From assembly GCA_022616435.1 (NCBI GenBank), contig JAKEET010000128.1, positions 62,001-126,000 on the forward strand: a stretch of 64,000 nucleotides of DNA. Reading direction: 5' to 3'. Below are positions 30,744 through 36,384 of the stretch, one piece after another. Each line of letters starts with the position of its first letter. Positions within the stretch are counted from its first letter, which is position 1. Both the position numbers and the translations under genes were made by a program. Under the pieces are notes generated by a model that was not told where the DNA came from, searched no databases, and saw only the letters and a list, made by a program, of their open reading frames with translations. The DNA is from Gemmataceae bacterium (lineage in GTDB: Bacteria > Planctomycetota > Planctomycetia > Gemmatales > Gemmataceae).

Positions 30744-31256
30744 TCAATCGCCTTTCTTTTTCTTCTTTTCTGCTTTCGGCCCGCCTGGCCCTTTGGCGTC
30801 TTCACGGAGCACCTTGCCGGCGCCGGACAGTAGAATCTTGCTTTTGCGGCCGTCGGAGCGGATGATGTCCACCTTGAACTGGAAGCCGTCGGGAGTGCCT
30901 TTGCGGTCCGCTTTCACCGCCTCGCCCTTGCCGACACGTTCGGCGATGTCGATGGCCTGACTCAAGGAGATCGTTTGGTCGCCGGCTTTGCCTTTCTTCT
31001 TCTCGCCGTCGACAGTCTTCTTGCCTTTGTGGGCGAGCCCTTTCTTGCCAGCGCCTTTGCCGGCAGCGTCGATGTGGTTCAACAGCTGCTGGGCAAGCCC
31101 TGGAGGCAGCGTGCTGAGGTTCACCGTGACGACGCCCCCTTTGCCCTTGCCCTTGCCTTTCCCCTTAACGCCGTCGTCATCGGCGGTTGCCGCCATGGTG
31201 AGCCCCACACTTGCCAGCAGCGTGGCGATGCCCATCAACCGCGATCTGTAACCCAT
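30744..31256 (-). CDS. Exported Lys/Gly-rich protein with PepSY-like region
   Basis: A 170-residue protein with a signal peptide, then the tract DDGVKGKGKGKGKGG. A central region reads VTVNLSTLPPGLAQQLLNHI and a C-terminal region SQAIDIAERVGKGEAVKADR continues into VDIIRSDGRKSKILLSGAGK, a pattern like PepSY domains. The C-terminus is again Lys-rich (EKKKKKGD). ATG 31256 begins the signal peptide. It lies 39 bases after another minus-strand gene, in the divergent half of the ECF sigma locus. The KGKGKGK tract recurs in two other proteins of this locus. The function is unknown. Confidence 0.75.
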   Translation of the reverse strand: MGYRSRLMGIATLLASVGLTMAATADDDGVKGKGKGKGKGGVVTVNLSTLPPGLAQQLLNHIDAAGKGAGKKGLAHKGKKTVDGEKKKGKAGDQTISLSQAIDIAERVGKGEAVKADRKGTPDGFQFKVDIIRSDGRKSKILLSGAGKVLREDAKGPGGPKAEKKKKKGD

Positions 31257-31295
31257 GACCGTCCTCCCGGCTCGGATCAAGGAGCGCATGCCTGG

Positions 31296-31781
31296 TCAAC
31301 GCGAGACCGGCGCATCCGCCATGGATAACGGAGCAGTCGGGTCGGCGTTGGCGAGAACCTCGCGAAATTCCTGCTCGATGCGTTGCCGGGCCTTGGCCAG
31401 CGCGGGTGTGCCGAACCGTTCGTGGTTGAGTTGCGATCGCCAGACGAGGCTGCGGGCGATGCGTTCTTGGTTACTCGAGCCGGGATACGCCATGGGCAAC
31501 CAGTTCAGGAATTCCGGGTAGGCCTTTTGTGATTCCGCCTCGATCGCCGCCGCCGCCAGCCGCAACGAGGTTTGGCCCAGGTCCAGGGCCGCGCCAATGC
31601 CGTCCAGCTTCCGTGCGAAGGCATCACGCCGCCGCCGTTGCTCGTCGATCTCCGCCCCATGCCGACATTCGTCCGCGAGGAGGTCCCGGGAGGCCGCGTC
31701 CTGACCGGACTGGCGGGCGTCGCCATAGAGCAACATGCCGAGCAGGCCCAGAAACAAGCAAACCGCAATGCCGCGACTCAT
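31296..31781 (-). CDS. Membrane-anchored hypothetical protein divergent from ECF sigma gene
   Basis: A 161-residue protein with a single N-terminal hydrophobic helix (IAVCLFLGLLGMLLYG) and a charged, mainly helical remainder containing DEQRRRRDAFARKLDGIG and ARQRIEQEFREVLANAD. I do not recognise a family. It is divergent from the sigma gene at 31955 with a 173-base gap, so it may be part of the regulon. The next gene on its strand is the PepSY-like protein. Confidence 0.65.
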   Translation of the reverse strand: MSRGIAVCLFLGLLGMLLYGDARQSGQDAASRDLLADECRHGAEIDEQRRRRDAFARKLDGIGAALDLGQTSLRLAAAAIEAESQKAYPEFLNWLPMAYPGSSNQERIARSLVWRSQLNHERFGTPALAKARQRIEQEFREVLANADPTAPLSMADAPVSR

Positions 31782-31954
31782 GACGCAACTCCTCGGGGCC
31801 GGTTTCGCGCTTCGTGAACCCCACGTCAAGGACAAACGCGGCTTCGCCGGTTTTGTTGGCGGAACCCTTTCGAGATTGTTGTTCGAGATTGTTGTGGCTC
31901 AAAAAAGGAGGCCGCGCCAACAACCCGGCCTGGGCCCCGTTATCCTGATAGGCG

Positions 31955-32518
31955 ATGAGACGCTCCGTGGAGCCGCAGGACGAAACGAACTGGATCCGCC
32001 AAGCACAGGCCGGTGACCGGGCGGCCTTTGCACGGCTCGTCGAGCGCTACTGGAGCCGCATTTTCCGCTGGCTGTATGGATTGGCGGGCTGCGGCCACCG
32101 GGCGGAAGACCTGACGCAAGAGGTGTTTTGCAAGGCCTGGGAAGCGCTGGGGACGTATGAGGCGGACCATTTTCGCGGCTGGCTGTTTCGGATCGCCCGA
32201 AACGCCCTCATCGATCACCGGAGGCGCCAGCGCCCTGCCGCATCGGGAGCACTGCTTGATGAATTCGCCGCCGCAGCGCCGGGCCCGCTCGACCAGCTGG
32301 TCGCCCAGGAGAATGAAGTGCTGCTGCGGCAGGCGTGCCGCCGGCTTCCCGAGCCGTTTCGCGAGGCGTTCCTCTTGTGGGCCCAGGAAGAAATGCACTA
32401 CGCCGACATGGCCCAGGTCCTGGACATCACGGAGGAGACGGCCCGCTGGCGCGTGTTCAAAGCGCGGCGCTGGTTGGTGAGATGCCTCGGTTCCCAGCTG
32501 GATTCCAAAACCCCATGA
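31955..32518 (+). CDS. ECF RNA polymerase sigma factor
   Basis: A 187-residue ECF sigma factor. Region 2 has AFARLVERYWSRIFRWLYGL and AEDLTQEVFCKAWEAL, and then FRGWLFRIARNALIDHRRR. Region 4 has RRLPEPFREAFLLWAQEEM and a helix-turn-helix VLDITEETARWRVFKARRWL. It starts at ATG 31955 without a strong ribosome binding site. Its stop overlaps the start of the anti-sigma gene as ATGA, so the two are translationally coupled. The target promoters cannot be predicted from the window. Confidence 0.95.
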   Translation: MRRSVEPQDETNWIRQAQAGDRAAFARLVERYWSRIFRWLYGLAGCGHRAEDLTQEVFCKAWEALGTYEADHFRGWLFRIARNALIDHRRRQRPAASGALLDEFAAAAPGPLDQLVAQENEVLLRQACRRLPEPFREAFLLWAQEEMHYADMAQVLDITEETARWRVFKARRWLVRCLGSQLDSKTP

Positions 32519-33837
32519 AATGCAGTGATGTACGACCCTGGCTCTACGTGAGCCGCGCGGCCGATCCTCTGCCGGGCGGCCTGCGGCGGCACCTGCGCCA
32601 TTGCCGGGCCTGCCGGCAACGTCGCCGGCGCCTGCTCCAGTTGGATGCCCAGGTCGCGGCCCTGCCGGCGCCACCGGCTTGTGAGGCGGCACGGCGGCGG
32701 TTTCTCGATCAGCTCGAGTCGTTGCCGGCTGCTCTCGGCACTCCGGCGGCCGAGGCGCCGCTGCCCGCGCCAAAGCCCCGGCGGGCGAGCAGACCGTTTT
32801 TCTACTGGGCGGCATCCATCCTGGTTGCGGCCGGATTAGCCGTGGCGCTCATCAACTGGCTCCCACGGGACGACCGGGCGCCGCCGGACGATGGGCGCGT
32901 GGCCGGCGCTTCGCTCACGTCCATGGATCGTCTCGTATTGCGGTTCGTCGACCGCGATCTGCGCTTGGCGGACACGCTGGTCGCCGCCGATCAGATGCAC
33001 ATCATCGCCGAAATGGCCGACGACCTGCGCGGCGAGGCGTTGCGACACGTGGATGGGGCGTCGGCCGAATCGTTGCCGCTGCTGACGGAGCTGTACGATC
33101 TGACGCTGCAACGCGGCGTGGTGGGCAGGATGCGATCCGTGCCGGCGGCCGAGCGTGCGGAGTTGCTCCGCGGCTTGTCGGAACGCCTGGACAAGACGGA
33201 AGCTGAAGTCGCGCGGGTGCTGGAGCGCTCCCCCGAAGACCTCGCCCTGCTGCTGCGGCCGATCCACAAGGCGACCCGGCAAGCGCGGGAACGGTTGGCC
33301 GGTCTGCACTTGCCGGCGCCTGCCCCGCCGCTGCGCTTGACGGAACGGGCCAATTCCCGCCAGGCGCTGCTGGCGGCGCTGGTCCTCAATGGCGTCCGGC
33401 TGGCCGAGGAGCCCGATCCGTTGCGGCGGGCGGACTACTGCTCCGACGTCGCCGATCAACTGCTGCAGGCGGTGTTCGCCGCGTCGGCCCAGGGCGAACG
33501 CGAGCAAGCGTCGCTGTTGAGCAAGCGGCTGGGGGATTTCATGCAGCGCGGCGTGTCGGCCAATCTCGCCCGCGTTCCGGCCGATGATCCGCGGATCGCC
33601 GACCTGCGGCAGGTGATGGGCCGCGCCGCCCAGATCCTGAGCGCCTTGGATCGCACTTTGGAGAACATGACCGCGCCCGCCGCAACCCGGCAGGACACCG
33701 TTTCCTGGCAGCGCCTGAAAGAGCTGGAATTCACGCTGAAGGACGTCGAGAAGGGTCTCAAGAAGGTCCAAAAGGCTTACAAGGACGGCGCGAAAGGTCA
33801 GCACAAAGGCAAGGGCAAAGGAAAATCCGCGGACTAA
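32515..33837 (+). CDS. Zinc-binding membrane anti-sigma factor with long outer domain (440 aa)
   Basis: The N-terminus carries a ZAS-type zinc motif: His26, Cys30 and Cys33 in HLRHCRAC, with Cys3 as possible fourth ligand. One transmembrane helix lies at about residues 95-116 (FFYWAASILVAAGLAVALIN). The roughly 320-residue outer part is mainly helical, with FVDRDLRLADTLVAADQMH and several heptad-like stretches. It ends in KGQHKGKGKGKSAD. ZAS proteins hold their sigma factor inactive at the membrane until a signal arrives. The large helical sensor domain is not one I recognise. ATG 32515 overlaps the sigma stop. Confidence 0.88.
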   Translation: MKCSDVRPWLYVSRAADPLPGGLRRHLRHCRACRQRRRRLLQLDAQVAALPAPPACEAARRRFLDQLESLPAALGTPAAEAPLPAPKPRRASRPFFYWAASILVAAGLAVALINWLPRDDRAPPDDGRVAGASLTSMDRLVLRFVDRDLRLADTLVAADQMHIIAEMADDLRGEALRHVDGASAESLPLLTELYDLTLQRGVVGRMRSVPAAERAELLRGLSERLDKTEAEVARVLERSPEDLALLLRPIHKATRQARERLAGLHLPAPAPPLRLTERANSRQALLAALVLNGVRLAEEPDPLRRADYCSDVADQLLQAVFAASAQGEREQASLLSKRLGDFMQRGVSANLARVPADDPRIADLRQVMGRAAQILSALDRTLENMTAPAATRQDTVSWQRLKELEFTLKDVEKGLKKVQKAYKDGAKGQHKGKGKGKSAD

Positions 33838-33852
33838 CCTGGGAGCGCCGCC

Positions 33853-34536
33853 ATGTCCCCCATGCGACCACTGCTGGCAAGCTTGTGGAGCTTTGTCGTG
33901 CTCGCGTCGTGCCTGGTGGTGTCGCAGGCCCAGGAATTCGCGAAGAAGAAAAAGGGCAAAGGACACTCCGAAGACGAGAAAATGCTCAAACTGCTCGAAA
34001 AGTCATTCAAGCACAAGGGTGATAAGAAAGGCGACAAGGGCGTTGACCCCGTTCGCGAGGCGGCAAAAGTCTTCCGCCATATCGACGCCGACGGGGACGG
34101 CCTCCTGGCGAACGACGAGATCCCCATGGCGCTCCGCGACAGTCTCGGCCGCTGGGACATCGACCGCGACGGCCGCATCAGCGCTCCGGAATACCTGGAG
34201 TACTTCGGGCGGCGCTTCGAATACCTGCGTCAGGACATCGCAGCCGGCATCATGGCGCCGCCGCGGTCGCGCGTGGTCGAATCGCTCAACGACGAGCGGC
34301 CGCGCGTGTTTCGCGCCGGCAAGCTGCCGCGGGAATTGCCCTCGTGGTTCGTCGAGCTGGACCAGGACCGCGACGGCCAAGTGGCCATGTGGGAATGGCG
34401 CCGTCAAAAGGGGGCTTCGGGGAAAGCGCTCATCGAGGAGTTTCGCGGCATCGATCGCAATGAGGATGGATTCATGACGCCCGAAGAGGCGCTGCGGCAT
34501 GTTCATCTCCAGCAGTCGAAGCGAGCACAGCCATGA
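33853..34536 (+). CDS. Exported EF-hand protein (four predicted calcium loops)
   Basis: A 227-residue protein with a signal peptide (1-26). A Lys-rich tract KKKKGKGHSEDEK follows, and another run KHKGDKKGDKG lies near residue 54. Four EF-hand loops are visible, starting near residues 78 (DADGDGLLANDE), 102 (DIDRDGRISAPE), 170 (DQDRDGQVAMWE) and 201 (DRNEDGFMTPEE). They are arranged as two pairs. It starts 15 bases after the anti-sigma stop, so it is probably in the sigma operon. Calcium sensing or calcium-stabilised structure outside the membrane is likely; a role as the input of the anti-sigma factor is inference. Confidence 0.88.
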   Translation: MSPMRPLLASLWSFVVLASCLVVSQAQEFAKKKKGKGHSEDEKMLKLLEKSFKHKGDKKGDKGVDPVREAAKVFRHIDADGDGLLANDEIPMALRDSLGRWDIDRDGRISAPEYLEYFGRRFEYLRQDIAAGIMAPPRSRVVESLNDERPRVFRAGKLPRELPSWFVELDQDRDGQVAMWEWRRQKGASGKALIEEFRGIDRNEDGFMTPEEALRHVHLQQSKRAQP

Positions 34537-34877: not shown

Positions 34878-35714
34878 ATGTCTCGGTCATCACGCGATGG
34901 ATTTACCTTGCTTGAACTGCTCGTCGTCATCGCCATCATTGCCATCTTGATCGGCCTGCTGCTCCCGGCCACCCGGCGCGTTCGTGGGGCAGCCGCAATC
35001 ACGCAGTGTCGAAACAATCTCAAGCAACTGATCCTGGCGTTGCACAACTTCCACGAAGCGGGCCGACCGTCCTATCCGTCAACGGGGGATCCGTTCGCGG
35101 CCGCCGTGCGGGCGTTTCCGCCCGGTTGTTTCGGTCCGGGGACGACGCCCGACGAGCGCCTTGGCTGGACGGTCGCGGTGTTGCCGTATTTGGAACACGA
35201 CGCCCTGTTCAAGCAATTCGACGTTGCGGCGGGGTATGCGGGGAACCTTGAGGCAGCCCAGGCCAGGATCGCGACACTGCTGTGTCCGGCCGCGAGTGAC
35301 CCGGCCACCGCCGGGGCGGTGACGCATTACGTCGCCATGGCCGGCATTCGGCGCGACGCCGCCCGGCGACCGGCGGGTGCGTCCAGCAACGGCTTCATGG
35401 GCTACGACCGCCTGACCTCGATGGCCATGATCAAGGACGGAACCTCCAATACCATCGCCCTGATGGAAACGCGTTCCGAGCTCGGGCCGTGGGCCCGCGG
35501 CGGCGTCTCGACCTTGCGCGGATTTGACCCGGCCGACGTGCCGCTGCACGACGTGCCGCTGCACGGCGACAGTCGCCCCTTCGGCGGGCATCCTCAAGGA
35601 ATGCAAGCGGCGATGGCCGACGGTTCGGTTCGTTTGATCCGCGCGTCGATCGAGCCGAGCAAGCTAGCCGCCGCGATCACCATCGCCGGCGGCGAACCGG
35701 CCGAGCTGGATTGA
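34878..35714 (+). CDS. DUF1559 prepilin-like protein (second copy)
   Basis: A 278-residue protein with a short leader, the prepilin motif [20 protein letters not shown], the [15 protein letters not shown] segment and the C-terminal [11 protein letters not shown]. It belongs to the same DUF1559 family as the protein at 4722-5696 but is shorter and clearly divergent in the middle. ATG 34878 gives a seven-residue leader before the cleavage site; longer forms begin inside the upstream repeat and are rejected. The next gene (DUF2306-like) follows after seven bases. Confidence 0.92.
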
Positions 35715-35721
35715 GCACTGC

Positions 35722-36384
35722 GTGAGGCGCCGCATGCTGACCACGGTTCTTCGCCTGCTCGCGGTCGTGTTGATCCTGCGCGTGCTGGTCACGATTCTCG
35801 CGAACTACCCGGATTACTTCCCTCCCGATTTCGATTCGCTCTTCCTGCAGGGCCGCGAAGCGACGTTCACCGGCGCTTACCCGCCGGCATTCTACGTGCA
35901 CATCTTCACCGGACCGTTGGTGCTGCTCAATGGGCTGATCCTGCTGAGCGACCGCGTTCGCCGGCGTCACGGCCGCTGGCACCGCGTCTTGGGGCGGGTT
36001 CAGGTCGGCGTGCTTCTGTTGTTCGTGCTGCCGAGCAGCGTGGTGATGTCCCGGCACGCCTTTGGCGGCTGGCCGGCCGGGCTGAGCTTCCTGCTGCTGT
36101 CGGCGGCGACCGCGGGTTGTGCGCTCGCCGGCGTGGTGCATGCGCGCCGCGGACGCTACGACCGGCATCGCCGGTGGATGATTCGCTGCTATGTCCTGAT
36201 TTGTTCGGCAGTGGCCCTTCGTCTATTCTCCGGGGCGGCGGGGCTTTTCGGCGTGTCGAGCCCCGAGGATGCGTACATCGTCGCCGCCTGGACGAGCTGG
36301 CTGCTCCCGCTGGCGGGCCTGGAGATCGTGCAGCGACTGACGGCGGCTCCGCGGCTAGCAGGCCCGGCGCCTGTTCCCAGATGA
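35722..36384 (+). CDS. DUF2306-like membrane protein
   Basis: A 220-residue protein with about six hydrophobic helices. The conserved block FYVHIFTGPLVLLNGLIL, then HGRWHRVLGRVQVGVLL, and HRRWMIRCYVLICSAVALR place histidine and arginine residues as in the DUF2306 family. The function is unknown; the histidines might bind heme. Start GTG 35722 or ATG 35734; both are in frame. It lies seven bases after the DUF1559 stop. Confidence 0.8.
   Translation: MRRRMLTTVLRLLAVVLILRVLVTILANYPDYFPPDFDSLFLQGREATFTGAYPPAFYVHIFTGPLVLLNGLILLSDRVRRRHGRWHRVLGRVQVGVLLLFVLPSSVVMSRHAFGGWPAGLSFLLLSAATAGCALAGVVHARRGRYDRHRRWMIRCYVLICSAVALRLFSGAAGLFGVSSPEDAYIVAAWTSWLLPLAGLEIVQRLTAAPRLAGPAPVPR

What the first reader, a model, noticed from the sequence alone, without database searches (positions are those of the whole stretch)
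30744..34536. ECF sigma locus with KGKGKGK tracts in three neighbouring proteins
Around a coupled sigma/ZAS anti-sigma pair lie an exported PepSY-like protein, a membrane protein and a four-loop EF-hand protein. The anti-sigma C-terminus (outside the membrane), the EF-hand protein and the PepSY-like protein each have Lys/Gly-rich runs such as KGKGKGK. These tracts occur in otherwise unrelated proteins, suggesting a common anionic partner or location (surface polymer, calcium-binding matrix). I know no described system with this composition, so it is a candidate calcium- or envelope-stress signalling module.
Basis: partly seen in the sequence, partly recalled or inferred. Interest (0 to 1): 0.7.

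Follow-up and report, generated by a model that had tools for sequence, protein, structure and literature searches.

The report
Autoregulated sigma locus with Lys-Gly tails
A planctomycete gene-control locus appears to switch on its own operon and a neighbouring set of exported proteins through one shared promoter motif, and its membrane sensor carries the same unusual lysine-glycine tract as an exported protein it controls, which suggests that the sensor monitors whatever that protein binds outside the membrane.

Summary
KGKGKGK occurs in the 6.4-Mb genome (79% complete) only in the PepSY-like protein and the anti-sigma tail, which lie side by side; the EF-hand tract is weak. A bipartite promoter motif not in the finding, GCCAAC-N16-CGTT(A/T), precedes the sigma-anti-sigma-EF operon, the divergent small exported gene and the PepSY gene: three of the genome's nine sites fall within 617 bp. 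Related divergent sigma/PepSY loci (L048, L049, L050) carry the same promoter pair, N16 kept. The EF-hand gene sits in the sigma arm here and in the PepSY arm there, so it changed arm but stayed in the regulon. The sensor is a ZAS domain, one transmembrane helix, two duplicated five-helix bundles (no significant Pfam or PDB match) and a disordered K/G tail. Such tails occur in 7 of 19 related two-domain sensors against 0 of 212 other C-termini nearby, mostly in loci that also encode exported K/G-rich low-complexity proteins. I read this as RsgI-like logic: sensor and regulon products share a ligand-binding module. Calcium as signal is untested. New variant of a known kind (ECF/anti-sigma).

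The parts
30744..31289 (-). Exported PepSY-domain protein with a 10-residue K/G run (window 31137-31166); real start probably 31256
   Evidence: Fold model and PDB matches YpmB, UipA, CD1622; homologues L048, L049, L186; tract coordinates
31296..31781 (-). mem161: small exported or anchored protein of a lineage-specific paralogous family, first gene of the divergent arm
   Evidence: five further copies in the own genome
31326..31352 (-). Predicted ECF promoter GCCAAC-N16-CGTTA in front of the PepSY gene (inside the end of mem161)
31834..31860 (-). Predicted ECF promoter GCCAAC-N16-CGTTT in front of mem161
31916..31942 (+). Predicted ECF promoter GCCAAC-N16-CGTTA in front of sigma (autoregulation)
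31955..32518 (+). ECF sigma factor (sigma2 and sigma4)
   Evidence: Pfam and NCBIfam
32515..33837 (+). ZAS anti-sigma: zinc-type domain, TM helix 95-114, two duplicated five-helix bundles (136-263, 281-428), disordered K/G tail; KGKGKGK at 33805-33825
33853..34536 (+). Exported EF-hand protein, four canonical loops, N-terminal KKKKGKG at 33943-33963; third gene of the sigma operon

Best explanation
The locus is a small, self-contained ECF circuit. (1) Inferred from the family: the ZAS domain holds the sigma factor at the inner membrane. (2) Inferred from topology and fold model: outside the membrane the sensor is two duplicated helix bundles plus a cationic disordered K/G tail. (3) Inferred, the least certain step: the tail binds the same extracytoplasmic partner (an anionic surface polymer or an assembly site) as the exported K/G-rich protein that the sigma controls, so the sensor reads how much of that partner is free; a change in occupancy releases the sigma, perhaps through proteolysis. 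(4) Strongly supported by sequence, not shown by experiment: released sigma recognises GCCAAC-N16-CGTT(A/T) and turns on its own operon, including the EF-hand gene, and the divergent mem161 and PepSY genes. The EF-hand and PepSY proteins would act as exported effectors or modulators of the same envelope layer. The logic resembles RsgI anti-sigma factors, whose outer part carries the kind of binding module that the exported enzymes under their control also carry. My confidence is about 0.85 for the circuit (1, 2, 4) and about 0.35 for the tail step (3).
For: Motif found by enumeration, N16 in 11 of 30 sigma upstream regions (15 with GGTT) against 0-1 for other spacers; three of nine genome sites at this locus; the same divergent pair in L048, L049 and L050; the EF-hand gene moves arm but stays in the regulon; KG tails 7/19 against 0/212 C-termini, Fisher 8e-9; KGKGKGK in this genome only in the sensor and its neighbouring regulon product; loci with such tails also encode exported K/G-rich low-complexity proteins next to the sigma, in L050 and L052 from the divergent promoter.
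Against: The motif is not visible upstream of sigma in L051, L053, L054 and L056. L051 has a K/G tail but no such neighbour. In L048 and L049 the PepSY protein is K/D/E-rich and the tail continues into a beta-rich extension instead of a long KG run. Relatives are not independent, so the p-values overstate the case. No binding partner, signal or release mechanism was tested, and disordered basic tails may be neutral.
Confidence: 0.5

Rival explanations
1. Calcium-signalling circuit: the EF-hand protein is the true sensor; in one calcium state it binds the cationic anti-sigma tail or the bundles and controls sigma release, much as proposed for CaBP and SigV in Caulobacter.
For: EF-hand gene in the predicted regulon in both gene orders; four intact loops; precedent of a periplasmic EF-hand protein tied to an ECF sigma (PMC13171946); acidic loop region (net -3) and basic tail (net +5) could attract.
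Against: EF-hand adjacency seen in only three genomes, while the sensor family is in at least 57 of 95; the other KG-tail loci read here lack an EF-hand gene nearby.
Confidence: 0.2
2. The K/G tail is a protease-access or degradation segment: a disordered C-terminus that a periplasmic protease engages when the helix bundles change shape, with no shared ligand.
For: Disordered C-terminus in the model; a recurrent end PPGxxKK in L009, L050, L051, L066 and L168; regulated proteolysis is common in membrane anti-sigma factors (general knowledge; RsgI and RseP, PMC12203970 abstract).
Against: Does not explain why exported regulon products carry the same tracts; no protease gene was seen at the locus; the window and L053-L056 tails do not end that way.
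Confidence: 0.15
3. The tracts are neutral low-complexity drift in a lysine-rich exported proteome; only the ECF circuit is functional.
For: KGKGKGK occurs in assorted proteins, some cytoplasmic, in 36 of 95 family genomes; the tract is not kept in the PepSY or EF-hand proteins of L048 and L049.
Against: In this genome the long tract occurs only in two adjacent genes; tails 7/19 against 0/212; mixed codons.
Confidence: 0.15

Closest known systems
ECF sigma / ZAS (class I) anti-sigma pairs
   Same: Two-domain sigma, overlapping anti-sigma gene, Hx3Cx2C motif, one TM helix, autoregulated promoter with AAC in the -35 part
   Different: Outer part is a duplicated five-helix bundle with no significant Pfam or PDB match, ending in a K/G tail; -35 reads CCAAC instead of GGAAC
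SigI/RsgI of Clostridium thermocellum
   Same: Works like it if step 3 is right: the anti-sigma carries outside the membrane a module that the exported proteins it controls also carry
   Different: Not a member: a ZAS-type, not RsgI-type, cytoplasmic part; a disordered tract instead of a folded carbohydrate-binding module; ECF instead of SigI
CaBP-SigV of Caulobacter vibrioides (PMC13171946)
   Same: Exported EF-hand protein encoded beside, and predicted to be controlled with, an ECF sigma
   Different: There the sigV promoter lies inside cabp and both are transcribed independently; here the EF-hand gene is third in the sigma operon, with PepSY and K/G tracts
SigmaE-MseR of Neisseria meningitidis (PMC3240639)
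   Same: Loss of the anti-sigma raises the sigma operon and a PepSY-associated TM protein
   Different: That PepSY gene lies elsewhere and is probably indirect (no shared promoter consensus)

Membership tests
ECF sigma factor | Sigma regions 2 and 4 without region 3 | tested here: met
   Pfam r2 3e-19, r4_2 1e-7, both above cut-off; TIGR02937 3.6e-28
ZAS (class I) anti-sigma | N-terminal Hx3Cx2C motif, gene coupled to the sigma gene | tested here: met
   H26, C30 and C33 invariant in nine homologues; start codon overlaps the sigma stop. Pfam zf-HC2 was not reached
ZAS (class I) anti-sigma | Inhibits its cognate sigma | not testable with these tools
   Needs reporter or binding assays
PepSY domain | Alpha-beta PepSY fold | tested here: met
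   Model with pLDDT above 90 over the domain; best PDB matches 2gu3, 7ath and 4exr, probability 0.99-1.00; homologue L186 passes the Pfam cut-off, 39.6 bits against 24; the window copy scores 13.8
EF-hand calcium-binding protein | Canonical 12-residue loops with D at 1, acidic or N at 3 and 5, G at 6, E at 12 | tested here: met
   Four loops at residues 78, 102, 170 and 201; Pfam EF-hand_6 4e-13
EF-hand calcium-binding protein | Binds calcium | not testable with these tools
   Needs a binding assay
RsgI anti-sigma | RsgI-type N-terminal domain | tested here: not met
   No RsgI match in Pfam or NCBIfam; ZAS motif instead
RsgI anti-sigma | Outer module shared with proteins of the regulon | tested here: inconclusive
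   K/G tracts shared, but no ligand known
CaBP-SigV type circuit | EF-hand gene adjacent to and co-controlled with an ECF sigma | tested here: met
   By predicted operon and promoter only, in three genomes
CaBP-SigV type circuit | Calcium-responsive expression | not testable with these tools
   Needs reporter assays

The most novel reading that the evidence does not exclude
A new class of anti-sigma sensor in planctomycetes: duplicated helix bundles plus a K/G polycation tail that measures occupancy of an anionic envelope matrix and homeostatically controls exported K/G-rich low-complexity proteins, with an EF-hand protein tuning the same matrix through calcium.
Probability: 0.25. Interest if true: 0.75.

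Novelty: new variant of a known kind. Interest (0 to 1): 0.55.

Why it matters
Planctomycetes carry many ECF sigma factors, and I found no paper describing a signal or regulon for one of this kind. This locus gives a testable circuit: a specific promoter motif, three predicted target sites, a new sensor domain family present in at least 57 of 95 family genomes, and a concrete idea that low-complexity cationic exported proteins are a regulated and sensed class. If right, it links bacterial low-complexity matrix-like proteins to a dedicated transcriptional sensor.

Tried and rejected
A viral-contig search with the anti-sigma found no relatives. A nine-sequence alignment was too diverse for the genome-contig scan, and a four-sequence one returned a single contig, apparently the one already seen as G031:C359. 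Classical GGAAC -35 elements upstream of sigma were not consistent across loci. A broader promoter pattern (ending CGTWY) gave hit numbers close to the reversed control in three of four genomes and only twice the control in the own genome, so no distant regulon could be called. The site in front of a GKGKG-rich gene (L195) lies inside the signal-peptide region of a divergent gene and is probably chance. PDB fold search of the whole anti-sigma gave nothing significant (best E 0.36). Sigma-70 promoter and terminator scans were uninformative. Papers defining planctomycete ECF groups were not held, so no ECF group number is assigned.

Full report
WHAT IS THERE. The five genes exist as described. 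On the minus strand, mem161 (31781-31296) is followed by a PepSY-like gene (31289-30744, start more likely 31256). On the plus strand, sigma (31955-32518), anti-sigma (32515-33837) and a four-loop EF-hand gene (33853-34536) follow one another with no room for separate promoters. The two sets diverge from a 173-bp gap.

THE TRACTS. KGKGKGK occurs in the whole 6.4-Mb genome (79% complete) only in the PepSY-like protein and the anti-sigma tail. The shorter KGKGK occurs in nine other places. Shuffling each protein's own residues never reached the two long runs in 20,000 trials; the EF-hand run is marginal, p 0.014. In 243 genes called around 19 related loci, all seven proteins with a run of 5 or more were the anti-sigma itself or its divergent neighbours. 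In 95 same-family genomes KGKGKGK turns up in 36, in assorted proteins, a few of them exported EF-hand proteins.

THE SENSOR. The anti-sigma has an Hx3Cx2C zinc-type domain, one TM helix (95-114) with a basic flank on the N-terminal side, and outside it two five-helix bundles modelled mostly with good confidence, then a disordered tail. The two bundles are a tandem duplication: profile comparison aligns 133 columns in register at E 2.7e-5. Pfam, NCBIfam and PDB fold search give no significant match. Relatives occur in 57 of 95 genomes by single-sequence search and 78 of 102 by profile, though the weakest profile hits cover only the ZAS part. In many genomes the second bundle is a separate exported protein encoded just after a one-bundle anti-sigma (L055, L058, L060), a natural split/fusion that argues the two bundles work together.

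THE PROMOTER. Enumeration of two-part words upstream of 25 related sigma genes gave CCAAC...CGTT in eight loci, against a maximum of four to five in shuffles. Refined, the spacer is 16 in nearly all cases, and the window has the motif before sigma (31916-31942), before mem161 (31834-31860, minus) and before PepSY (31326-31352, minus). Genome-wide the pattern GCCAAC-N16-CGTTW occurs nine times, three of them here; the reversed control pattern occurs four times. L048, L049 (both genus g10) and L050 (a paralogous locus of the L048 genome) each contain exactly two CCAAC-N16-CGT(T/A) sites, one facing sigma and one facing the PepSY gene; L052 has one, facing an exported low-complexity gene. Other spacers score 0-1 in the sigma direction. 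The EF-hand gene follows PepSY in L048 and L049 but follows the anti-sigma here, so it stays within the predicted regulon either way. The sites on the opposite strand and in front of PepSY were not used to find the motif, so they test it independently.

THE K/G THEME. Tails of two-domain sensors have runs of 4 or more in 7 of 19 cases, against 0 of 212 other C-termini in the same loci and 0 of 9 separate second-domain proteins. Most loci with such tails also encode exported K/G-rich low-complexity proteins, usually with a conserved membrane protein ('AHLYQ'): L050 and L052 in the divergent arm, L053, L054, L056 and L066 downstream of the anti-sigma. Two-domain sensors without such tails (L063, L064, L169, L175) have no such neighbours. 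L051 is an exception. The relatives are not independent, so the p-values overstate the strength.

READING. Well supported by sequence: an autoregulated ECF/ZAS circuit whose local regulon includes itself, the EF-hand gene, mem161 and PepSY. Inferred: that the tail samples the same outside partner as the exported K/G-rich products, as RsgI sensors do with shared binding modules (papers listed; the detail is from general knowledge). Open: the signal, the partner, any role of calcium, and any distant targets. A calcium-centred version has a recent precedent in Caulobacter (PMC13171946), but the EF-hand link is seen in only three genomes.

ORGANISM. A contig of the same length and with the same match as G031:C359 (L139) is titled 'Planctomycetales bacterium isolate SW_37', so the window is planctomycete; placement in Gemmataceae is my inference.

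LIMITS. The genome is an incomplete MAG, genes in relatives were called by a simple GC-position method, shuffles for the motif enumeration were few (five), and the ECF group was not assigned because the classification papers were not held.

Noticed in passing
L049:3937-8031 (also L183, L187): A second PepSY-like gene heads a run of redox genes: an FAD/NAD oxidoreductase, a TM protein and a multihaem cytochrome c. In L049 this run directly follows the EF-hand gene, so the ECF promoter might also drive it.
   Followed up: partly
L009, L050, L051, L066, L168 anti-sigma C-termini: Five sensor tails end in PPGxxKK plus one residue, a recurrent C-terminal motif of unknown meaning.
   Followed up: no
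L048:6514-6760, L049:23-270, L056:9015-9250 (minus strand): Here the tail continues into a beta-rich extension of about 70 residues without a Pfam match.
   Followed up: no
window 31296-31781 and L232-L236: mem161 belongs to a family with six copies in this genome, in unrelated contexts (one beside another ECF/anti-sigma pair, L233), and only weak hits in four other genomes.
   Followed up: partly
window 34900-36384 and L055:44-1503: The DUF1559-like and DUF2306-like gene pair downstream of the locus is also found near the related sigma/anti-sigma pair in L055, a shared gene order.
   Followed up: no
L076, L077, L079, L092: Elsewhere in the family, proteins with EF-hand loops, mostly short and exported, carry KGKGKGK tracts, hinting at a wider link between K/G tracts and calcium-binding exported proteins.
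   Followed up: partly
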